Source: Fervidicoccus fontis Kam940 (lineage in GTDB: Archaea; Thermoproteota; Thermoprotei_A; Sulfolobales; Fervidicoccaceae). From it: 64,000 nucleotides of DNA. Made by a program: the position numbers and the translations under genes. The stretch's first letter is position 1, and every line of letters starts with the position of its first letter. The stretch lies in assembly GCF_000258425.1 (NCBI RefSeq), contig NC_017461.1, forward strand, positions 248,001 to 312,000, read 5' to 3'. Shown here in pieces: positions 27,151 through 40,035 of the stretch. The notes under the pieces were generated by a model. That model did not search any database. It worked only from the letters and a program-made list of their open reading frames with translations, and had not been told where the DNA came from.

Positions 27151-29040
27151 ATGAACATAAAAGAATCAATGACAGTTATTGATCTTATTGCATTTTTAAG
27201 AGAGCTAGAAAAAGAAAAAATTAACTTAAAAGTTTCTAATATTTATCACATCCCTCAGACTAAGAGAATCTTAATCAAGTTAAAAGATCCTTATTTTAAG
27301 TTCCTAGTAGCTGAAGCTTCTAAGAAAATTTATTTTTCTAAGTATTCATTACCAACTCCGGAAAAGCCGAGTATTTTTGCACTTTCGCTTAGGAAGTATT
27401 TAAATGAAAGAGTTATTACGAGCATAAAACAGATAGGTTTTGATAGAATTTTAAAACTTGAATTCGATAATGACTACGCTCTATATATCGAACTACTCCC
27501 TAGAGGAGAAATCATCTTAACAGATCCTACAGAAAGAATCATTCATGCATCATCATTCAAAAAAATGAGAGATAGAAAAATAGAAAGAAATTCGCAATAT
27601 ATTCTGCCTCCAATTTTTGAGAAAAGGCCTACGGCCGAAATGTGCATCGAAGCTTTATCAAGCGAAGGTAAAAAGGGCTTAATTAAAAAACTTGGGCTTC
27701 CACATGAACTTATTGATGAAGCTATAGGAGAAGTTGGTTGCGAAAATTGTTTTGAAAAAATTTGCAATAAAATTGAAGAAATAATGGGTTCTTTAGGAAT
27801 TGATGGAGGATATATAGTTCATCAAGATGATACGCTTATAGCATTCTATCCTTTTAATCCATCTGTAATTCATAAGAATTCTAAAATTGAAAAAACCGAA
27901 AAATTCAATGATGCTCTTGATAAGTATTTTTATAGTATTGATGTTCTGAGACCCGTTGCTTTGGAAGACGAAGAAATTTCAAGAACAAAAGCTAGCATTG
28001 ATAAGATTAGAGAAGATATTGAAAAAGGTGAGCAAAAGGTAAAAGAGCTATATGAAGTTGCAAACAGATTAGCTTCATTTTCTTCATATATAGAAGAAAA
28101 AATTAAATGTGCTAGAGAGGTTCAAAAGAAATACGGTTGGGAAAAAGTAAAGGAAAGATGCCCAGGCATACAAAAAGTTTTTCAAAACAGTGGAGAGTTC
28201 ACTTTAGATTTAGAGGGAAAAGAATATAAATTCAATATATTTGAAGATGCCTTTACGCAAATTGGTAAAATTTTTGATGAAGCTAAAAAACTAAAGAAAA
28301 AAGTTGAAAATGCAAAAGCTAATTTAGAAACACTCGAATTAAAGCTCAAAGAGTTGAACTTAAAAAAGCATGAAAAAGAAAGAGAAGTTAAAGCTATAGC
28401 GAGAAAAAGAGATTGGTATGAAAAATACATATGGAGCTTTACAAGAAACAGGTTATTGATTATAGCTGGCAGGGATGCACAGCAAAATGAAGCTATAGTA
28501 AAAAAATATCTTATGAAGAACAAAAAATCTCTGTATTTCCATGCAGAAATTCATGGCGCGCCTTCTACGATATTATTAGCAGAAAATGAAGATATTAAAG
28601 AAGAGGATATATATGACACATCTGTTATAGCAGCATCTTATTCGAAAGCATGGAAGGCCTCTCTAAAAGTCGTGGACGTATTTTGGGTACATAGTGATCA
28701 GGTTTCAAAAACTCCCCCTGCTGGAGAATACCTTGAAAAAGGAAGTTTTATGATATATGGAGAAAAAAATTATGTAAGAAACGTTCCATTAAAACTTGGA
28801 ATTGGATTGCAACAAACTGCCGATAATGCTTATAGATTTTTTGTTGGAAGCGAAGAATCAGTTAAGAAGAATTCCTATCCAGTAGCTATTATTGAACCGG
28901 GAAATATTGAAGCTCAAGAAGTAGCAAATAAAATATATCAATATATTAAGAATTTAAACTTTGAGTCGCTTCCATCGTTAAAAGAACTGGTTCAGATAAT
29001 ACCTGGAAAGTCTAATTTATCTTTTGAAATCAATCATTAA
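27151..29040 (+). CDS. rqcH: NFACT (RqcH/Rqc2/NEMF-like) ribosome quality control protein
   Basis: 629 residues. An N-terminal NFACT-N domain (LRELEKEKINLKVSNIYHI; LRKYLNERVITSIKQIGFDRI), a middle coiled coil (about 285-440), and the C-terminal NFACT-R domain RLLIIAGRDAQQNEAIVKKYL...LYFHAEIHGAPSTIL. Family members bind stalled 50S/60S subunits carrying nascent chains and recruit charged tRNA to add C-terminal Ala (bacteria) or Ala/Thr tails (yeast). The archaeal role is inferred from these. ATG 27151 follows the methyltransferase closely. Confidence 0.9.
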   Translation: MNIKESMTVIDLIAFLRELEKEKINLKVSNIYHIPQTKRILIKLKDPYFKFLVAEASKKIYFSKYSLPTPEKPSIFALSLRKYLNERVITSIKQIGFDRILKLEFDNDYALYIELLPRGEIILTDPTERIIHASSFKKMRDRKIERNSQYILPPIFEKRPTAEMCIEALSSEGKKGLIKKLGLPHELIDEAIGEVGCENCFEKICNKIEEIMGSLGIDGGYIVHQDDTLIAFYPFNPSVIHKNSKIEKTEKFNDALDKYFYSIDVLRPVALEDEEISRTKASIDKIREDIEKGEQKVKELYEVANRLASFSSYIEEKIKCAREVQKKYGWEKVKERCPGIQKVFQNSGEFTLDLEGKEYKFNIFEDAFTQIGKIFDEAKKLKKKVENAKANLETLELKLKELNLKKHEKEREVKAIARKRDWYEKYIWSFTRNRLLIIAGRDAQQNEAIVKKYLMKNKKSLYFHAEIHGAPSTILLAENEDIKEEDIYDTSVIAASYSKAWKASLKVVDVFWVHSDQVSKTPPAGEYLEKGSFMIYGEKNYVRNVPLKLGIGLQQTADNAYRFFVGSEESVKKNSYPVAIIEPGNIEAQEVANKIYQYIKNLNFESLPSLKELVQIIPGKSNLSFEINH

Positions 29041-29137: not shown

Positions 29138-29566
29138 ATGGATATAAAAAGAAAAGAGTATTCAGTTAAAGATTTAATGAGTTTTAATGTTGTTACAGTT
29201 GATCCTAATACTTCGTTAGATGAAGCAGTAAGGATTATGCTAGAAAATAATATTGGAAGTGTAGTTGTTGTAAACGAAAAAGGGGTTTTAATTGGAATAT
29301 TAACAGAAAAAGACTTAATCACAAAAGTGATTAAAGGAAAGCTCGATTTGAAGGATCTTAAGGTGAAAGATATAATGAGTGCTCCAGTCGTATACGTTGA
29401 GCCCGATACTCCTCTTTACGAAGCGGTTGCATTAATGCAATCAAAAAAGATAGGTCATCTTCCAGTTGTAAAAAATGGAAGAGTTGTAGGAATTATTGCA
29501 ACAGGAGATATTATATCAATAGCGCCTGAATATTTGGAGCTACTAAGAATAAAGAAAAAAAGATGA
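29138..29566 (+). CDS. two-CBS-domain protein
   Basis: 142 residues: two CBS domains back to back forming one Bateman module (VKDLMSFNVVTVDPNTSLDE... then VKDIMSAPVVYVEPDTPLYE...), each with the GILTEKD or GIIATGD adenine-nucleotide-binding pattern. No attached enzyme or DNA-binding domain. Probably senses AMP, ATP or AdoMet and regulates a partner. MetK follows downstream, which makes AdoMet a tempting but unproved ligand. Confidence 0.88.
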   Translation: MDIKRKEYSVKDLMSFNVVTVDPNTSLDEAVRIMLENNIGSVVVVNEKGVLIGILTEKDLITKVIKGKLDLKDLKVKDIMSAPVVYVEPDTPLYEAVALMQSKKIGHLPVVKNGRVVGIIATGDIISIAPEYLELLRIKKKR

Positions 29567-29809: not shown

Positions 29810-31027
29810 ATGACAAAAAACATATATGTCGAAGAAGTTGAGTGGCAACTGCCTCAAGATATGGAAATTGAATTAGTCGAAAGAAAAGGTATAGGCCATC
29901 CAGATTATATAGCTGATTCTGCTTCTGAAGAGGTTAGCATAGGATTATCGAACTATTATATTGAGCATTACGGTAGAATTCTTCATCACAATGTGGATAA
30001 GGTATTAATTGTTGGAGGACAATCAGATCCTAAGTTCAGAGGAGGTCGCGTCCTCCATCCTATATACATATTAGTTTCAGGCAGAGCAACAACTACAGTA
30101 AAAACTGACGATGGCATTGAGAACGTCCCAATTGGAACTATTATAATGTCATCAGTAAAAAAATGGATTAAGAACAACATGAGATATTTAGATCCAGAAG
30201 AGCACGTCATTGTGGACTATAAAATAGGAAAAGGAAGTGAAGATCTTACAGGGATATTTGATAGAGGACTTAGTGTTCCGCATGCAAATGATACGAGCTT
30301 CGGTATAGGATTTTACCCATATTCTACATTGGAAAATGTTGTTTATCAAACCGAAAGGTTCTTAAATAGTCCAGAAATGAAGAAGAAAATTCCAGAACTA
30401 GGAGAAGACATTAAGGTAATGGGCTTAAGAAATAAAAAAGAAATCGATTTAACTATCGCAGGAGCTATGATTAGCAAGCTTGTCGACGACAAAGATCATT
30501 ATATCAATATTAAAGAAAAAGTGGTTGAAGAAGTTTATAAATATACAGAGAGATTGGCACCTGAATATGAAATAAAGATATTCTTTAATACAGGCGATTC
30601 TCCTGAAAAGAATATCTTCTATTTAACAGTTACGGGAACGAGCGCAGAGCATGGAGATGATGGCGCAACTGGTAGAGGAAATAGAGCCAACGGGCTTATC
30701 ACACCGATGAGACCTATGAGCTTAGAAGCAACAGCAGGAAAAAACCCAGTCAATCACGTTGGAAAAATTTACAATATCATCGCTATGCTAGCAAGCAAGA
30801 AAATATATGAGGAACTTCATGAAGAGGCTCATGTTATAGTTCAGATATTAAGCCAAATTGGAAGGCCAATCGATGATCCTTTGGCAACTTCTATTAAATT
30901 AACATCTAAAACAAAACCGATAACTAATGATATGAAAGAAGAAGCAAGAAACATAATTGAACAAGAACTAAAAGAAATAACAAAATATACGAAATTAATC
31001 CTCGAAAAAAAGGTACAACTATTCTAA
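29810..31027 (+). CDS. metK: S-adenosylmethionine synthetase, archaeal type
   Basis: 405 residues. Archaeal-type MAT motifs: [38 protein letters not shown]-like [17 protein letters not shown], and [16 protein letters not shown] followed by [19 protein letters not shown]. Makes AdoMet from methionine and ATP. GAGG precedes the ATG by a few bases. Stand-alone transcription unit with an AT-rich 240-base leader region. Confidence 0.96.
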
Positions 31028-31162: not shown

Positions 31163-33136
31163 TTACCTATCTTTTCTCCTCTTTTCCCTATATTCATTGA
31201 ATATCTTTTCAAACTTTTCTATCTCTTTAACTTTCTCTATCTCTTTAAGCTTTTCCTCGGCTTCTTTGATCTTATCCAGTACTTTTCTTTCTATGATAAT
31301 AATGTCTTTAATTTTTTTGTAGTCGTATTCAAATATGGAAACAACAGGTATACCATTTTCTTTTAACAAATTGTATATACCACTATTTTCGCTATACTGA
31401 TATGAGATGAGAATTCCTCGGATATTTTTATTTTTTAAAAGAATTCCAATATCGCTTTGGTAAGAATCAGGGTTTTCAACATAAATCAAGTTTACATTAT
31501 ATTCGAGTAGTTTGTTAAGATTGCTTTTCGTTAAACTTGAAACAATTGGAACGGGTATATATTCTCCTTTAACTAACTTGTCAAGTATATCTTCATATTC
31601 CTTTACCCTTTCTTCGAGCATTTTTATATCTAAATTCTTTGCTTCCAGCTGTTTATTTAATTCGCTAATTGATTCTTTTAAAACACTCATAGTCCTTTCA
31701 ATGCTAGAATTTATATCAACCAGCTGAACATTCTTTTTTGCTAGTTTAATTTCCTTATCTTTGTTTTTTAGTTCTTCGTAAAGTTTGTTAATCTTTGCCT
31801 TTAACAAAATGTTTTCTTTTTTTATTTTTTCAAGCTCTTCATTTAATTTCTTTTCTAAATCTCTGGCTCCGGCTTTATAATCTATTATCACTTTATTTTC
31901 TCTTTCCATACTCAGTATCCGTTTCAGTTCTTCTTCTATGGCATCAGAGACAGCCTTACCTTTAATTACTTCCTGCTTTATTTTTCTAGAAGATAAAGAG
32001 AGCCCGGTTCTCAAAAGATATTCATCAACTTCTTTTAATTTTTTAGAAAGCGTTTTGAATGCGTTGTAAGCGGCGGAATATGCGTCTCGCATATGAGAAT
32101 CTAATGATATATCGCTAGTTCCTGATAACGCATTAAATGCCATTTCTCTTTTTACTTCTACGCTCAAAGATTCCTCAGGTATAAAAAGTTCCGCATTAAA
32201 TTTACTTGCAATTTTTTTAACGGTATCAGGAACAGGTTTAACATCTGCAGCAATTATTACCGGACTTCCATAGCTTTGAATCAACTCTATAACTTCTTCT
32301 CTATCTCCAGATCTTTTTGTTCCTAAATATAGTAAATTTCCTTCTATGTCTAAGATTGCAATGCCGAAATTTAGTCCAGGATCTATACCTACAATAATAG
32401 GTTTATCTTCTTTCTTCTCCTTTTTAAAAGCGAAGGATATTACCAGGTCATTCTTTATTTCTATACTAACACTTGTTCCTTGCCTGGGTTTTATCAATCC
32501 TATTAAACTACTTCTTGGGGTATAGACTGTAAAAATCGCACCATCTATTCCCGCTCCTGATTTTCTATACAAAAGTTCATAATCAAAATTGTTCTTGTCT
32601 AAAACATCTTTTATATCATTGGTTATTTGGAGGATAGTAACTCTAACTTTTCTCTTATATCTGTTGTTACTCATTCCTCCAGGTCCATAGCTTCTATTTT
32701 TTCTAACAATTATTTTAGTTCTGATCTGTTTTTTAATTAAAGAAGTGCCATAACCTGTATAAGCAAGATATGCTAGATAATAAGCAGTTTTTTGCGGAGT
32801 TAAATTAAAAGTTGAAATGCCGGACTTTTTCAAAATGCCTCTAAAATCCTCAAAACCTTCATCATTTAAATTCACTTGAATGAATTCTGTATTTTCGGGG
32901 AATAAAGAAATTATCCTTTTTAATTCTCTTACGTTTGGAGCTAATTCAAAAATGTTATCTGTAGCGACTTTTTTAACATTATAGTCCCATGCCAATCTTA
33001 TTATTTTTTCTAGGCCTCCATTTTCAATTTTAGAAATGAGTTTGCCATCACATATAAGTACAATAGCATATAATTTTTCCATTTGGTTACTAATATCAAA
33101 ACCAAGTACGCATATATTCGCGTTTGTTTTGCTCAT
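31163..33136 (-). CDS. DUF460 protein, RNase H-fold domains and long coiled coil
   Basis: 657 residues. N-terminal VLGFDISNQMEKLYAIVL and a second VGIDPGLNFGIAILDIEGN at about residue 250 have the RuvC/RNase H-like nuclease first-strand pattern with Asp; HMRDAYSAAYNAFK carries further acidic residues. Residues about 430-545 are coiled coil, followed by a small alpha/beta domain and a basic C-terminal helix. The DUF460 family occurs across crenarchaea and its function is unknown; a nucleic-acid-cleaving role is only inferred from the fold. Confidence 0.85.
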   Translation of the reverse strand: MSKTNANICVLGFDISNQMEKLYAIVLICDGKLISKIENGGLEKIIRLAWDYNVKKVATDNIFELAPNVRELKRIISLFPENTEFIQVNLNDEGFEDFRGILKKSGISTFNLTPQKTAYYLAYLAYTGYGTSLIKKQIRTKIIVRKNRSYGPGGMSNNRYKRKVRVTILQITNDIKDVLDKNNFDYELLYRKSGAGIDGAIFTVYTPRSSLIGLIKPRQGTSVSIEIKNDLVISFAFKKEKKEDKPIIVGIDPGLNFGIAILDIEGNLLYLGTKRSGDREEVIELIQSYGSPVIIAADVKPVPDTVKKIASKFNAELFIPEESLSVEVKREMAFNALSGTSDISLDSHMRDAYSAAYNAFKTLSKKLKEVDEYLLRTGLSLSSRKIKQEVIKGKAVSDAIEEELKRILSMERENKVIIDYKAGARDLEKKLNEELEKIKKENILLKAKINKLYEELKNKDKEIKLAKKNVQLVDINSSIERTMSVLKESISELNKQLEAKNLDIKMLEERVKEYEDILDKLVKGEYIPVPIVSSLTKSNLNKLLEYNVNLIYVENPDSYQSDIGILLKNKNIRGILISYQYSENSGIYNLLKENGIPVVSIFEYDYKKIKDIIIIERKVLDKIKEAEEKLKEIEKVKEIEKFEKIFNEYREKRRKDR

Positions 33137-34486: not shown

Positions 34487-34527
34487 TGAAACATTACCAA
34501 ATTTCTATAGAATTGTTAATCAAATAG

Positions 34528-34537
34528 GTTTATATGT
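34528..34537 (+). promoter_or_regulatory. TATA box of the four-CBS operon
   Basis: GGTTTATATG is a good TATA element; the predicted start near 34558 leaves under ten bases before GTG 34567, so the first gene would be nearly leaderless. It sits in the divergent region shared with rio2. Confidence 0.45.
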
Positions 34538-34566
34538 TATTTCTGAGTAATAATATTATGGTTTAG

Positions 34567-35382
34567 GTGATTTCTATTCCAGTTGGAAAAGTTAAAGCTG
34601 AGAACATATTGAAAAAATTTCCATATCTTTTGCCATATGACAAAGCTTCTCATGCTAGAGAGCTGATAAGAGAGTATAAAATAAGGGTCCTGGCTGTTGC
34701 GAATTCTCCTAATAATCCAAAAATAGTTGGACTAATAAAAAGAGTTAATATCTTAAATATAAGTTCGACAAAGTCAAATCTTCAGGTTAATGATATAATG
34801 GAACAGCCTATTGCTATTATTAGAGAAGATGATGAAGTTGATGTCATCCTTAATGCTTTATTAAAAAACAATGAATGGTATGGGATTGTTACAAACAGCA
34901 GTGGAGAATATAAAGGTATTGTCGGTCTAGAAGATGTAATTAATTATTATTACAAAAATGAGCCTGAAATCTTTAATGTTGAGGCCTCGGTGCTTTCAAA
35001 AAAATTAGAATATCTCTATGAAGATGACGAGATTTCAAAAGCTTGGTACAAAATGCTAGAACATGATTATGCTGGTTTTCCAGTTGTTAAGAGAGATTTA
35101 AAAGTTGTAGGATCTTTGACGCAACATGATTTGATAAGCAAAGGCTATACGAGAATCCAACTTGAATCACAGACCTCACCAAGAAAAATACTTGTAAAAG
35201 AAGCTATGAACGTGCCGCCTATATGCATCAAACAAAGCGATAAAGTTACAAATGCTGTAGATGAAATGGTAAATAAAAATGTAGGCAGAGTTTTTATTAT
35301 TGATGATGGTGGAAAAATAAAAGGAATAATAGACAGATCAGATATCGCTAGACTAATATTTGAAAAGAAAATTAAAAGTTAA
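34567..35382 (+). CDS. four-CBS-domain protein 1
   Basis: 271 residues, four CBS domains in two Bateman modules with nothing else. Domain boundaries show as DKASHARELIREYKIRVLAV, VNDIMEQPIAIIREDDEVDV, YEDDEISKAWYKMLEHDYAG and VKEAMNVPPICIKQSDKVTN, each followed by a GxI-x-xxD adenosyl-binding turn (GLIKRVNIL, GIVGLEDV, GSLTQHDL, GIIDRSDI). GTG 34567 is near the predicted transcription start. First of four adjacent paralogues; ligand and partner unknown. Confidence 0.85.
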   Translation: MISIPVGKVKAENILKKFPYLLPYDKASHARELIREYKIRVLAVANSPNNPKIVGLIKRVNILNISSTKSNLQVNDIMEQPIAIIREDDEVDVILNALLKNNEWYGIVTNSSGEYKGIVGLEDVINYYYKNEPEIFNVEASVLSKKLEYLYEDDEISKAWYKMLEHDYAGFPVVKRDLKVVGSLTQHDLISKGYTRIQLESQTSPRKILVKEAMNVPPICIKQSDKVTNAVDEMVNKNVGRVFIIDDGGKIKGIIDRSDIARLIFEKKIKS

Positions 35383-35396
35383 ATAGGTGAATTAAT

Positions 35397-36329
35397 TTGG
35401 GTTCAAATTATTTTAGAAGCAGGATAGAAGGTTATAGATGGCTTAGGAGCGATGGGAAGCCCAGTTTCAGTACAAGGGTATATAGAGTAGAAAAAGAGCT
35501 CGAAAGATTAGCAAAGAAAATCTTTGTTAGCGTAAGTCAAACTTCACCTGTTTTAGATGCAATTGAAAAAATGTATACATTTCAAGAAGAGCAATTGTTA
35601 GTGCTACATGGAGAGAGTAATTTTTCAGGTTTAGTGACAAGTGAAAACGTTATTGATTATTTAGGTGGGGGGGAGCTTTATAACATTGTCATGGATAGGC
35701 ATGGTGGGGAAATCCATAGCGCTTTAAATGAGCAAGTCAAAACGATAATGATAAAGGAATCTCCATTTGTATATATCAATGAAAAGCTTCCTGACGTCAT
35801 ATCATCAATGATTAAAAATAAAACAAGAGCTCTACCCGTCTTATATAAAGATAACACAGTATATGGAATAATTACGCAGAGAGATATTGTAATGCTATTG
35901 GCAGAAAAGAGGACCGGAGTCAAAGCAGGTGAAATTTGTTCACCTATCATTTCAGTTAATTCTCTTGATCCTCTTATTGTCGGCATGAAAATGCTTGTTC
36001 AGACAAGCTTAGATAGCATATATGTAAAAAATGAGATGGATCAGATAATAGGTACTTTAGATTCAAGTGGAATAGTACAGCTTTTCGGTTCACATGAGGC
36101 TTTTAAGTTCGTTAAAAAAGGATACTTAACAGAAGTTAATTCTATACCAATAAAAGATGTTATGCAGTTTAATATTGAGAGAGTTTATAAGCAGGTCGAT
36201 ATGGGTGATGTAATAAGTAAAATGTTCAATAAAAAGCTCAAAACTGTTCTTGTAACAGACGAGAATGATGAAGATATTGGCATGATAACATTTGATGACG
36301 CTTTTTTTGTTTTAGCCTTGCCTATTTAA
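35397..36329 (+). CDS. four-CBS-domain protein 2
   Basis: 310 residues from TTG 35397, with GGTGA about seven bases upstream. A basic 35-residue N-terminal tail (NYFRSRIEGYRWLRSDGKP) precedes four CBS domains; the tail is not found in the other three paralogues and could bind nucleic acid or a protein. The first and fourth CBS domains are the most diverged, while VYGIITQRDIVMLLAEK in the second is canonical. Fourteen bases after the previous gene. Confidence 0.82.
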   Translation: MGSNYFRSRIEGYRWLRSDGKPSFSTRVYRVEKELERLAKKIFVSVSQTSPVLDAIEKMYTFQEEQLLVLHGESNFSGLVTSENVIDYLGGGELYNIVMDRHGGEIHSALNEQVKTIMIKESPFVYINEKLPDVISSMIKNKTRALPVLYKDNTVYGIITQRDIVMLLAEKRTGVKAGEICSPIISVNSLDPLIVGMKMLVQTSLDSIYVKNEMDQIIGTLDSSGIVQLFGSHEAFKFVKKGYLTEVNSIPIKDVMQFNIERVYKQVDMGDVISKMFNKKLKTVLVTDENDEDIGMITFDDAFFVLALPI

Positions 36330-36363
36330 TTTTTGCAAAAATATCATTGGGGTTGAAATCTAA

Positions 36364-37209
36364 ATGGTCGTAAAAATAAATGACTATATAAGTTCTCCTG
36401 TTATTTCCGTATTACCTTCTGATACCTTGGCATATGCGAGAAACTTAATGCTTAGACACGAAATAAGCCGGCTCCTTGTTATTGATGAGGGCAAGCTTGT
36501 AGGAATTCTCACATCATCCGATCTCTTAAAAGCCTTGAGCGTTCCAGAATTTTCTAACGTATCGTGGGATAAAATTTTAGTTAGAGATGTGATGAGTAAA
36601 AATGTTATAACCATAAAAATAAACTCTTCAATTTCAGATGCTGCTGCTCTGATGAAAAAATACATGATTGGTTCACTGGCTGTAATAGACAACAATGGAG
36701 ATGTCGTCGGATTAATTACGAGAACCGATTTAATCAAAGCATACGCTGACAATTACACAAATAATTATACAGTTAAAGATTATATGGACAAAAATCCGCC
36801 AACAATATCACCATTTCATCCAATTACTTCAGTATTTGACAAAATTGAGGAAAAGCCATATTACAAGGTAATCATAGTAGACAGCGGAAAGCCGGTCGGA
36901 ATCATAACTAAGAAAGATATAATATTTCTAAGAAAGGATGTATTTTCTAGGCAGGAAAAATATATAAAAAGAGACGAGCTTCTAGAAAAAGGAAGAACGG
37001 GCGGAGTTAGATATTATATCGTCCCTCTTGCAAGCGATATTATGAGTACAAATTTGGTGACTGTTTATCCAGACGAAAAGCTTCCAGAAGCAGCAAAAGT
37101 TATGATAAAAAATAAGATAGGAAGCTTAGTTGTTATAAGCGAATCTAATGGCCTTCTCTTAGGGTTGCTGACGAAAAATGAAATAATAGATGCTATAAGT
37201 AAGCTTTGA
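36364..37209 (+). CDS. four-CBS-domain protein 3
   Basis: 281 residues from ATG 36364 with GGGGTTGA upstream. The best-conserved of the four: all four CBS domains show the beta-alpha-beta core and closing turn (LVGILTSSDLL, VVGLITRTDLI, PVGIITKKDII, LLGLLTKNEII), with the -DxMS- start motifs VRDVMSKNVITI and ASDIMSTNLVTV. A basic linker (RQEKYIKRDELLEKGRTGG) joins the third and fourth domains. Confidence 0.87.
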   Translation: MVVKINDYISSPVISVLPSDTLAYARNLMLRHEISRLLVIDEGKLVGILTSSDLLKALSVPEFSNVSWDKILVRDVMSKNVITIKINSSISDAAALMKKYMIGSLAVIDNNGDVVGLITRTDLIKAYADNYTNNYTVKDYMDKNPPTISPFHPITSVFDKIEEKPYYKVIIVDSGKPVGIITKKDIIFLRKDVFSRQEKYIKRDELLEKGRTGGVRYYIVPLASDIMSTNLVTVYPDEKLPEAAKVMIKNKIGSLVVISESNGLLLGLLTKNEIIDAISKL

Positions 37210-37219
37210 GGTGGGAAAA

Positions 37220-38035
37220 ATGGCATGTGATATAAAAAATTTATTAAATGAGAATGTTAGCTTTCTATTGAGAACAGATTTTCCGACTATTGATAAAAAT
37301 CAAACACTCACGCAAGCTTTCAAATTAATGGAAAAGTATAGAATTGATAGAGTTGTTGTCACGGAAAACAAAATACCAATAGGTATAATGACAAAAAAAG
37401 ACGTTCTGAATAAGTTAATGGTAGAAAGGACAAGATTAGTTTCTGCATCAAGATTGCATGTTTCGAGCTTTTATACGCCAAATCTATATCATGTTGATGA
37501 AAGATCAACAGTAGCCGATGCTGGAAGAGAAATGAAAGAGAAAAAGATCAGTTCAGTTGCAGTAATGAAGGACGATGCTCTAGTGGGTATCGTAATAAGA
37601 ATGGACTACTCAAAGCTATTGTCAAGCTGTGAAGAAATTTCATCAAAAAGTTTTGCATCTTCTTTGAAAAAAGTTGTTAGATTTGGAGAAAGAATTACAA
37701 GTCTAAGAGAAATATTCCTCAAAGAAGATGTAGTATACCTACCAGTAGTTGACCCAAATAATTATTTAGCAGGGTATATAACAGTCAACAATATTGCTGA
37801 TGCACTTTTATTTTATCAAAAAGACACAAAAGAATCTCTCAGGAAAGTTGCAAGAAAAGAAATTGTGGTAGAAGAAGTAATGAGTAGACCTCCTTTATTC
37901 GTATATTCAAGCGATCCGATTTCAAAAGCATCAAAATTAATAATAGAGCATCAGTCAAGAGGAGTTTCAGTAATTGAGAAAGATTTGCTAATTGGAATAA
38001 TAGATGATAATGATATATTAAGAAACATAATTTGA
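37220..38035 (+). CDS. four-CBS-domain protein 4
   Basis: 271 residues from ATG 37220, which has GAGGTGGG four bases upstream; GTG 37211 is inside that site. Four CBS domains (IGIMTKKDVL, VGIVIRMDYS, AGYITVNNIA, IGIIDDNDIL), the second and third with altered closing turns. The stop codon of the previous gene lies ten bases before, so the four genes are one operon. Confidence 0.85.
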   Translation: MACDIKNLLNENVSFLLRTDFPTIDKNQTLTQAFKLMEKYRIDRVVVTENKIPIGIMTKKDVLNKLMVERTRLVSASRLHVSSFYTPNLYHVDERSTVADAGREMKEKKISSVAVMKDDALVGIVIRMDYSKLLSSCEEISSKSFASSLKKVVRFGERITSLREIFLKEDVVYLPVVDPNNYLAGYITVNNIADALLFYQKDTKESLRKVARKEIVVEEVMSRPPLFVYSSDPISKASKLIIEHQSRGVSVIEKDLLIGIIDDNDILRNII

Positions 38036-38134: not shown

Positions 38135-38614
38135 ATGGAAAAAAGATTTATTGTCGATTGTATGCTCGGAAATGTTGCTAGGTATTTAAGAATATTAGGA
38201 TATGATACATTGTATGAAATAGATATATCAGATGATGAAATTATCGAAAAAGCAAAAAAGGAAGATAGAATAATAATTACTAAAGACAATCTTTTATGGA
38301 AAAAGGCACTTTCAGACGGAGCAAATGCTTTTCTTGTTAAAAAAAGTTATTCTAATACAAAGGACATTCTATGTGAGTTAAAAAAGAACGGGTTAATATC
38401 TTTGAAATTCAGTCCGCATAATAGCAGATGCCCATTATGCAATGGGAAGTTAATGATCAGTATAAATCAACCGCTTCTAAAAATACATAAAAATAGCGAA
38501 ATGAGAGTTTATTTTGTATGTCAATCATGTGGAAATATATATTGGATCGGAAAACATTTTAAAAATATATTGAAAACTTTGGAGGATGCAGAATATGAAG
38601 CAAATAGAACCTGA
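38135..38614 (+). CDS. Mut7-C RNase domain protein (PIN-like) with zinc ribbon
   Basis: 159 residues. FIVDCMLGNVARYLRILGYDT followed by IIEKAKKEDRIIITKDNLL are the acidic motifs of the Mut7-C PIN-like nuclease domain. The C-terminal third has CPLC and CQSC, a zinc ribbon. The family is related to the C-terminal part of animal Mut-7 and is thought to act as an RNase. It overlaps the start of the AMMECR1 gene. Confidence 0.88.
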   Translation: MEKRFIVDCMLGNVARYLRILGYDTLYEIDISDDEIIEKAKKEDRIIITKDNLLWKKALSDGANAFLVKKSYSNTKDILCELKKNGLISLKFSPHNSRCPLCNGKLMISINQPLLKIHKNSEMRVYFVCQSCGNIYWIGKHFKNILKTLEDAEYEANRT

Positions 38615-39215
38615 AGAACTAACATTGGAAGATGGAAGAATTTTGGTGAAAAAAGCTAGAGAAAGCGTAGAGAAAGCATTCATTTATGAAGAAGCCAAAA
38701 TTAATGATGTACCTGAAAAACTGAGGAGACCAGGAGCGGCTTTTGTTACTATAAATATTATAAAAAACAGGAAAAAAGAGCTAAGAGGATGTATAGGCTA
38801 TGTAAAGCCCGTATATCCGCTGATTCAAACGGTAATAGAAGTTGCAAGGGAAGCAGCATTTAATGATCCTAGATTTCCACCGCTTCAGAGAAGAGAATAT
38901 CCATTCACTCACTTTGAAGTTTCTGTTCTCTCTGGTATGAGGGAGCTACCGAGAGACCCTGAGGAAAGATTAAAGAGCATAGTTATGGGAAAAATGGGTT
39001 TAATGGTAGTCAGAGGAATATTCTCGGGTCTTCTTTTACCTCAAGTTCCTATTGAAGAAGGATGGGATAAGGAGACTTTTTTAGAATATACATGCTATAA
39101 AGCTGGATTAGAGGGATCATGCTGGAAGGATGAAAAAACTGAATTTTATTATTTTGTAGCAAGAGTTTTTGAGGAGAAATATCCATTTGGTGAAATTATT
39201 GAGAAAGAACTTTGA
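38595..39215 (+). CDS. AMMECR1 domain protein
   Basis: 206 residues. AMMECR1 hallmarks: PGAAFVTINIIKNRKKELRGCIGY (the LRGCIG motif with its Cys) and AAFNDPRFPPLQRREYPFTHFEVSVL. The fold is conserved from archaea to human but its reaction is unknown; the conserved Cys has suggested an enzyme. GGAGG lies nine bases before ATG 38595; ATG 38586 is too close to that site. It overlaps the Mut7-C gene by 20 bases. Confidence 0.9.
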   Translation: MKQIEPEELTLEDGRILVKKARESVEKAFIYEEAKINDVPEKLRRPGAAFVTINIIKNRKKELRGCIGYVKPVYPLIQTVIEVAREAAFNDPRFPPLQRREYPFTHFEVSVLSGMRELPRDPEERLKSIVMGKMGLMVVRGIFSGLLLPQVPIEEGWDKETFLEYTCYKAGLEGSCWKDEKTEFYYFVARVFEEKYPFGEIIEKEL

Positions 39216-39371
39216 ATTAAATTTTTGTGATGGATCAAAAATAGGTTACAAATTGCAAACTGAAAGTCTCGCCTTTTGATGTAGCGATAAATATCTAAAA
39301 GCTTTTCTAGTTTTGGTTTTTATTGAAGATGAACATAAAAGCGATGTACGCATTGAATAAAAGAGGTTCAG

Positions 39372-39694
39372 ATCTCATATAAGTTCATATTAGTTGATGC
39401 ATCCCTTCTTGGTTCTGCATATGGCTTTGGAGCTTTCAAGAGCAAGGTATTTGGAGAACATGTTTATGCATGCAACAATATCCTAAAGCATCTGAGGGTT
39501 CTATAGATTTTATCGCGAAGCATCCAAAGAAATTCTACAATCTTCTTATCGCTGCTCTCTGGAAGAGCTCTCTAACCCTCATTGAGGTATGTCCTTAAAA
39601 GAACATTTTAAAAGAATGCGGAGAGATTTATAAATAGCGAAGAAATAACATTAACATCAAAATATAAACTTTTATGAAACTCAAAACAGTTTGT
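39372..39694. mobile_element. 340-bp-class element with terminal inverted repeats, copy B
   Basis: Reverse orientation relative to copy A at 8244-8583. Its right end, 39661-39694, is identical base for base to the left 34 bases of copy A. The central 39399-39570 stretch (from GCATCCCTTCTTGG to GGAAGAGCTC) is nearly identical too, while a short piece after it and the left end differ by small indels. On this strand the remnant reads LVDASLLGSAYGFGAF and KVFGEHVYACNNILKHLR, then after a shift IAKHPKKFYNLLIAALWK: a decayed protein not recognised. Immediately right of it (39695-39790) lie further broken frames such as ILEKALTVLRKKEAFMNK. The flank 39216-39371 shows nothing. Confidence 0.75.
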
Positions 39695-39871
39695 CGAGGC
39701 TCTCACCGAGAAAAAGGTGAGGAATAGACGATCCTAGAAAAAGCTCTCACTGTTCTGCGTAAGAAAGAAGCATTCATGAATAAATGAGGAAAACTAATGA
39801 TTTCCCGAAGGGAGAATAAGTTGCCATCGAAAAACTAACATATGGTTTGATGTATTGTTTGAAACTACAAA

Positions 39872-39937
39872 ACAATCAGTTTAACTCTGATTAATCATTG
39901 ACAAAAGTCTCATGCTTGCCGGTTATCATCATCTTGC
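39872..39937 (-). ncRNA. C/D box sRNA (2'-O-methylation guide)
   Basis: On the minus strand: box C ATGATGA (39932-39926), 12-nt guide TAACCGGCAAGC, box D' ATGA (39913-39910), 11-nt spacer, box C' ATGATTA (39898-39892), 12-nt guide ATCAGAGTTAAA, box D CTGA (39879-39876). The two 12-base guide intervals equal those of the sRNA at 47020. D' is one base off the consensus. The targets are probably rRNA or tRNA and cannot be identified here. Both guides direct methylation of the nucleotide paired five bases from D/D' (established rule). Confidence 0.7.
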
Positions 39938-40035
39938 ATAAATCACATAGAACGGATATTTTATTTTTTTCTTGATATGAAATTGTTTAATTATTAATAT
40001 ATAAAAAATATAAATATATCTTGGGGTAATTTTCT

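What the first reader, a model, noticed from the sequence alone, without database searches (positions are those of the whole stretch)
34567..38035. Operon of four consecutive four-CBS-domain proteins, sixteen CBS domains in 3.5 kb
Four tandem paralogous genes with no attached effector domain, spacing of 10-34 bases, and one of them with a unique basic N-terminal tail. Free CBS proteins normally bind AMP, ATP or AdoMet and regulate partners. Four diverged copies in one operon suggest a heteromeric nucleotide sensor, perhaps a ring or filament of different subunits, with an unknown target. Neighbours are RIO2 (divergent), Mut7-C RNase and AMMECR1, so a link with RNA or ribosome metabolism is possible. 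I know of no described function for such an array.
Basis: partly seen in the sequence, partly recalled or inferred. Interest (0 to 1): 0.65.

Follow-up and report, generated by a model that had tools for sequence, protein, structure and literature searches.

The report
Archaeal ribosome-hibernation CBS gene quartet (SriA-D)
Four neighbouring genes in this heat-loving archaeon encode the counterparts of SriA, SriB, SriC and SriD, proteins seen bound to the ribosome of a methanogen, so they most likely park idle ribosomes during stress; the kind is already known, but this shows it is ancient and, in this branch of archaea, packed beside a ribosome-rescue gene.

Summary
In detail: four tandem genes (34567-38035, +), each encoding only a four-CBS module. 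They are neither a local duplication nor a system without known function. Each has a separate counterpart in the Protein Data Bank: CBS1 = SriA, CBS2 = SriB, CBS3 = SriC, CBS4 = SriD, solved on the Methanosarcina acetivorans 70S ribosome (9ZNF, 9ZNG, 9ZNI). The same order A-B-C-D occurs in Methanosarcina and in many Thermoproteota, and trees put CBS1-4 in four ancient clades. Dri, the Pyrobaculum hibernation factor, is a fusion of a CBS1-type and a CBS3-type module. The cluster matches the published 'CM-5/4/1/2' hibernation cluster. Best explanation: four ribosome-docking CBS modules, probably working as A+B and C+D pairs that block the peptidyl-transferase centre and mRNA channel of inactive ribosomes, possibly under adenylate control. 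The RIO2 link is a local accident. The conserved Thermoproteia context is NFACT (RqcH/NEMF), a two-CBS gene, SriA-B-C-D, Mut7-C RNase, AMMECR1, which ties hibernation genes to ribosome quality control; I found no published mention of that. SriB's basic N-terminal tail is strongly conserved (RWLRSDGxPNF) and predicted disordered. New member of a known kind; moderate interest.

The parts
34567..35382 (+). CBS1 = SriA ortholog (CM-5 type): four CBS domains; related to the N-terminal lobe of Dri
   Evidence: phmmer to 9znf_4 (M. acetivorans 70S + SriA/SriB) E=1.3e-29 (title); clade with methanogen CBS1 and Dri N-halves 100/100
35397..36329 (+). CBS2 = SriB ortholog (CM-4 type): four CBS domains behind a conserved basic N-terminal tail (TTG start)
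   Evidence: phmmer to 9znf_5 E=1.4e-25; AlphaFold2 pLDDT 90.4, full four-CBS disk; clade with methanogen CBS2 92/73
35397..35501 (+). Conserved basic, predicted disordered N-terminal tail of CBS2 (residues 1-35, motif RxExxRWLRSDGxPxF), net charge +4
   Evidence: 15 of the 39 columns before the first CBS domain are at least 80% conserved in 30 Thermoproteia orthologs, net charge +1 to +8 in the complete ones; residues 1-8 and 10-12 have pLDDT under 50
36364..37209 (+). CBS3 = SriC ortholog (CM-1 type): four CBS domains with the best conserved adenosine-type motifs; predicted beta-hairpin between domains 3 and 4
   Evidence: phmmer to 9zni_6 (70S + SriC/SriD) E=1.1e-34; Foldseek to 9zni_6 E=2.2e-23; clade with methanogen CBS3 and Dri C-halves 100/99
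36928..37029 (+). Inserted loop between the third and fourth CBS domains of CBS3 (residues 189-222, net charge +4), the place of the ribosome-contacting loops described in Dri and HibA
   Evidence: two strands 200-206 and 212-218 with low-confidence tip in the model; net charge; loop position in Dri and HibA from PMC13324472
37211..38035 (+). CBS4 = SriD ortholog (CM-2 type): four CBS domains
   Evidence: phmmer to 9zni_7 and 9zng_7 E about 6e-17; clade with methanogen CBS4 100/96
29138..29566 (+). CBS0: two-CBS protein, first gene of the ancestral array, here parted from CBS1 by the MAT-DUF460-RIO2 block
   Evidence: Pfam CBS x2; directly before CBS1 (or the first remaining array gene) in most other arrays and before SriA in Methanosarcina loci
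27151..29040 (+). NFACT protein (RqcH/Rqc2/NEMF family), conserved upstream neighbour of the array in Thermoproteia
   Evidence: Pfam NFACT-R_1 9.1e-31 and NFACT_N 5.4e-28; same-strand neighbour within 600 bp of the array in 21 loci, window included
38135..38614 (+). Mut7-C RNase-domain protein, conserved downstream neighbour
   Evidence: Pfam 3e-34; follows CBS4 in most Thermoproteia arrays
38586..39215 (+). AMMECR1-domain protein, overlaps the end of the Mut7-C gene
   Evidence: Pfam 7.1e-50; follows Mut7-C in many arrays

Best explanation
The four genes are the SriA-SriB-SriC-SriD quartet of standalone four-CBS ribosome-binding proteins (the published CM-5/4/1/2 cluster). Each product folds into a disk of four CBS domains. 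When translation stops, SriA (CBS1) plus SriB (CBS2), or SriC (CBS3) plus SriD (CBS4), dock into a vacant 70S ribosome. By homology with the two lobes of Dri, CBS1 should sit in the large subunit at the peptidyl-transferase centre and CBS3 in the small-subunit mRNA channel; CBS2 and CBS4 would be their companions on the same particle. The CBS2 tail and the CBS3 loop are candidate rRNA-contacting elements. This keeps ribosomes inactive and protected until growth resumes; adenylate binding by the best preserved domains may tune it. Shown here: identity, orthology, gene order, and that the homologs are solved on 70S ribosomes. Taken from papers: what Dri and HibA do. Inferred: subunit placement in this organism, inhibition, protection, nucleotide control.
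For: One-to-one PDB matches by sequence: CBS1-9znf_4 1.3e-29, CBS2-9znf_5 1.4e-25, CBS3-9zni_6 1.1e-34, CBS4-9zni_7 6e-17. Entry titles: 9znf = M. acetivorans 70S with SriA and SriB, 9zni = with SriC and SriD, 9zng = with SriD. All three also hold the uL2 and uS12 sequences of 9O17, the M. acetivorans 70S. Same gene order in Methanosarcina, Methanosalsum, Ca. Methanohalarchaeum and a further euryarchaeote. Tree: each quartet member joins its methanogen counterpart; Dri halves join CBS1 and CBS3, as published for CM-5 and CM-1. No Dri-type fusion at E<=1e-25 and no HPF/RaiA domain in this genome, in line with the published exclusion between HibA and these families.
Against: No experiment exists on this species. 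The CBS2 clade of Thermoproteia plus methanogens has only 92/73 support. A profile from methanogen CBS4 alone scores window CBS3 slightly above window CBS4 (127.7 against 123.1 bits), although window CBS4 itself is scored best by that profile. The publication behind 9ZNF, 9ZNG and 9ZNI was not found, so inhibition by Sri proteins rests on entry titles and on analogy with Dri and HibA. The CM labels are placed from the printed order CM-5/4/1/2 and from the Dri halves, not from the paper's sequences.
Confidence: 0.88

Rival explanations
1. A free heteromeric adenylate sensor of the AMPK-gamma kind (like MJ1225) that regulates a kinase or enzyme partner such as RIO2, not the ribosome.
For: The best fold matches of the CBS2 and CBS3 models are MJ1225 (3kh5, 3lfz), with AMPK gamma further down. 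S/T and D motifs typical of adenosine binding are well kept in CBS3 and partly in CBS2 and CBS4. RIO2 is the divergent neighbour.
Against: By sequence, the closest solved chain of each of the four is a ribosome-bound Sri protein, above MJ1225. RIO2 adjacency is absent from the 40 other rio2 loci read. The motifs are eroded in CBS1 and CBS4, which suits a structural role.
Confidence: 0.06
2. Ribosome-associated factors of quality control or biogenesis rather than hibernation: they would work with NFACT and Mut7-C on stalled large subunits, clearing or marking them.
For: NFACT sits directly upstream on the same strand in 21 loci, and Mut7-C follows CBS4 in most arrays. Both are RNA- or ribosome-linked families.
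Against: The NFACT and Mut7-C link is missing in the methanogen loci, where the same quartet is kept. The solved complexes are with whole 70S ribosomes, whereas NFACT proteins act on split large subunits (general knowledge).
Confidence: 0.05
3. Transcription regulators of the HhpR (CM-3) type.
For: HhpR also has four CBS domains and a loop between domains 3 and 4 (PMC13324472).
Against: All four score far below the HhpR cut-off (57.3, 32.7, 72.8 and 43.5 bits against 520) and match ribosome-bound chains instead.
Confidence: 0.01

Closest known systems
SriA, SriB, SriC, SriD of Methanosarcina acetivorans (PDB 9ZNF, 9ZNG, 9ZNI, released 2026-01-28)
   Same: One-to-one sequence counterparts; same fold; same gene order in Methanosarcina relatives
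   Different: Crenarchaeal sequences, only 21-27% (CBS2) and 28-33% (CBS3) identical to methanogen orthologs; CBS0 split off by the MAT-DUF460-RIO2 block; NFACT/Mut7-C/AMMECR1 context not seen in the methanogen loci
CM-5/4/1/2 gene cluster of archaeal CBS-module families (PMC13324472)
   Same: Order and family content agree: CBS1 and CBS3 group with the two Dri halves, published as CM-5 and CM-1
   Different: The paper calls the role of CM-2 unresolved; the order makes CM-2 = CBS4 = SriD, which is in a 70S structure. The paper does not mention NFACT or Mut7
Dri of Pyrobaculum calidifontis (9E6Q, 9E7F)
   Same: Its N half is CBS1-type, its C half CBS3-type
   Different: Dri is one eight-CBS chain; this genome has no such fusion at E<=1e-25
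HibA of Pyrococcus (PMC13324472)
   Same: A four-CBS module bound at the large-subunit active site
   Different: HibA carries an HPF/RaiA domain; none is found in this genome
MJ1225 / AMPK gamma
   Same: Four-CBS disk
   Different: Weaker sequence match than the Sri chains; no kinase partner known for the array

Membership tests
Sri quartet / CM-5/4/1/2 cluster | Four standalone proteins, each of four CBS domains, no effector domain | tested here: met
Sri quartet / CM-5/4/1/2 cluster | Each orthologous to a different one of SriA-D | tested here: met
   PDB matches; tree with methanogen orthologs: CBS4 100/96, CBS1 and CBS3 clades (with Dri halves) 100/100 and 100/99, CBS2 92/73
Sri quartet / CM-5/4/1/2 cluster | Gene order A-B-C-D | tested here: met
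Sri quartet / CM-5/4/1/2 cluster | Binds the 70S ribosome | not testable with these tools
   shown for homologs by PDB entries, not for this species
Sri quartet / CM-5/4/1/2 cluster | Absence of HibA (published exclusion pattern) | tested here: met
   no PF02482 match in the whole genome; the Pfam model may miss a divergent HibA
Dri | CBS1-type and CBS3-type modules fused in one chain | tested here: not met
   none in this genome or its four family members at E<=1e-25
[quoted passage not shown]
HhpR (CM-3) regulator | Score above the NCBIfam cut-off of 520 bits | tested here: not met
   57.3, 32.7, 72.8 and 43.5 bits
AMPK-gamma-like adenylate sensor | Binds AMP, ADP or ATP | tested here: inconclusive
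   motifs kept in CBS3, partly in CBS2, eroded in CBS1 and CBS4; no binding data
AMPK-gamma-like adenylate sensor | Regulates a kinase or other catalytic partner | not testable with these tools
   no conserved kinase neighbour; RIO2 adjacency not conserved

The most novel reading that the evidence does not exclude
In Thermoproteia the gene string NFACT, CBS0, SriA-B-C-D, Mut7-C is one functional system in which hibernation and rescue compete for the same vacant or stalled ribosomes: Sri pairs cap idle ribosomes, NFACT handles those with a stuck nascent chain, and the Mut7-C RNase trims or destroys failed RNA, with the two-CBS protein CBS0 as the energy-sensing switch.
Probability: 0.2. Interest if true: 0.6.

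Novelty: new member of a known kind. Interest (0 to 1): 0.36.

Why it matters
It turns an unexplained CBS gene array, annotated only by domain, into a named ribosome-hibernation set in a hyperthermophile lineage with neither Dri nor a recognisable HibA, so the quartet may be its main dedicated hibernation machinery. The same order in Thermoproteota and Methanosarcina implies an ancient archaeal operon, probably older than the Dri fusion. The order also links SriD to the CM-2 family, whose role the 2026 survey left open. The NFACT/Mut7-C neighbourhood makes a link between hibernation and ribosome rescue directly testable.

Tried and rejected
RIO2 partnership: 40 other rio2 loci read; none has the array divergently beside rio2. 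Recent tandem duplication: rejected by the tree and by shared order. 'Dri replaces the quartet': rejected as a general rule, because several genomes with all four genes also have a Dri-type fusion (families f4, f9, f11); in f1 and f8 it was not found. Loss of CBS1-3 in family f3: first suspected, then found as a separate CBS1-2-3 (or CBS2-3) cluster in the four f3 genomes read. NCBIfam names (PrdR, IMP dehydrogenase and so on): all far below cut-off, generic CBS similarity. Literature: no hit for CBS with Fervidicoccus, CBS with NFACT, or the Sri names; the Dri paper is not held.

Full report
What is there. The window lies in a single 1,319,206-base contig (G000, positions 248001-312000). Its size and low GC fit Fervidicoccus fontis, which is my guess from memory and is not needed for the argument. 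Four ORFs fill 34567-38035 on the + strand, with gaps of 14, 34 and 1 bases. Pfam sees only CBS domains in them: 4, 3, 4 and 4 stretches. The missing domain of CBS2 is present in an AlphaFold2 model of mean pLDDT 90.4; the CBS3 model has 90.7. So sixteen domains is right.

Not a local duplication. I read 40 rio2 loci and about 60 array-related loci from the same class. The full order CBS1-CBS2-CBS3-CBS4 on one strand recurs in five families of the same order (f1, f4, f8, f9, f11), with partial sets elsewhere, and median gaps of 11, 6 and 5 bases between neighbours. Some lineages keep subsets: CBS2-CBS4 in f2; CBS0-CBS4 in f3, with CBS1-2-3 (or CBS2-3) elsewhere in the four f3 genomes read (L141-L144); CBS0-1-2-3 with CBS4 elsewhere in a member of the own family (L160, L115). 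A tree of 107 proteins splits into four clades, each with 100% bootstrap, that agree with gene position. The order was never inverted in what I read.

What it is. Comparing each window protein with all PDB sequences gave four different chains: CBS1 to 9znf_4, CBS2 to 9znf_5, CBS3 to 9zni_6, CBS4 to 9zni_7 and 9zng_7. These entries share uL2 and uS12 sequences with 9O17, published as the M. acetivorans 70S ribosome (PMC12605026). Foldseek gave the titles: 70S with SriA and SriB (9ZNF), with SriC and SriD (9ZNI), with SriD (9ZNG), all released 2026-01-28. A scan with a 9znf_4 fragment found Methanosarcina and other methanogen loci in which a two-CBS gene and SriA, B, C, D stand in the same order as in the relatives of the window.

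Relation to Dri and HibA. A joint tree places the N halves of Dri-type eight-CBS proteins with CBS1 (100/100) and the C halves with CBS3 (100/99); a fusion of this type matches P. calidifontis Dri at 1.4e-53. PMC13324472 (April 2026) describes Dri as a fusion of CM-1 and CM-5 and mentions a CM-5/4/1/2 gene cluster. Hence CBS1 = CM-5, CBS2 = CM-4, CBS3 = CM-1, CBS4 = CM-2; this mapping rests on order and on the Dri halves, not on the paper's sequences. That paper reports that these families rarely co-occur with HibA; here no HPF/RaiA domain is found, and no Dri-type fusion at E<=1e-25 in this genome or its four family members.

How it most likely works. [quoted passage not shown] By homology CBS1 should take the large-subunit site and CBS3 the mRNA channel. 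The pairing in the PDB entries suggests A+B and C+D as working pairs; where B and D sit I could not see. Candidate contact elements are the CBS2 tail, with 15 of 39 columns at least 80% conserved and pLDDT under 50 at its start, and the loop between the third and fourth domains of CBS3, predicted as a hairpin, at the place where Dri and HibA carry their ribosome loops. CBS3 keeps adenosine-type motifs best, CBS1 and CBS4 least. Nucleotide control is therefore possible but unshown.

Neighbourhood. The ancestral Thermoproteia arrangement is NFACT - CBS0 - CBS1-2-3-4 - Mut7-C - AMMECR1. NFACT is on the same strand within 600 bases of the array in 21 of the loci, in several families; these loci were chosen for holding the array and are related, so this is not a rate. 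In the window, a MAT-DUF460-RIO2 block lies between CBS0 and CBS1, while the sister genome L101 has them adjacent. That block is itself common elsewhere, so RIO2 beside CBS1 is best read as a rearrangement. In other Thermoproteota classes a CBS0-CBS1-CBS2 unit occurs with Mut7-C 1.3-3.2 kb further on. Methanogen loci show no NFACT or Mut7-C within the stretch read.

Verdict. Real, ancient and of a known kind: the archaeal Sri / CM-5/4/1/2 ribosome-hibernation quartet. New here, as far as I could find: the NFACT and Mut7-C linkage, the conserved SriB tail, and the tie between SriD and CM-2.

Noticed in passing
window 39216-40035: An 820-base stretch without a listed ORF of 80 aa or more between AMMECR1 and DNA ligase; it reads like a decayed gene, perhaps a transposase remnant.
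   Followed up: no
window 31163-33136 and 29810-31027: DUF460 and AdoMet synthetase lie next to rio2 in most Thermoproteia loci read, a conserved block of its own; DUF460 has no known function.
   Followed up: partly
L248:920-1798 and L251:740-1561 (own genome, near C1:1191000 and C1:138300): Two further four-CBS proteins of the own genome, outside the Sri clades on long branches.
   Followed up: partly
L188-L207: Dri-type eight-CBS fusions, full or nearly full length, in 35 of 147 class genomes, several of which also hold the whole quartet: the two systems can coexist.
   Followed up: partly
L228-L234, L243-L247: Lone CBS2-type genes in other Thermoproteota classes, away from other quartet genes in the stretch read; a genome search shows CBS3-type genes elsewhere in several of them.
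   Followed up: partly
L162-L186: The two-CBS protein before SriA in methanogens is longer (about 190-260 aa) than CBS0 here (142 aa), with an extra part that has no clear Pfam match.
   Followed up: partly
window 34525-34545: A TATA-like stretch (GTTTATATGTT) some 35 bases before the start of CBS1, a possible promoter of the array.
   Followed up: no
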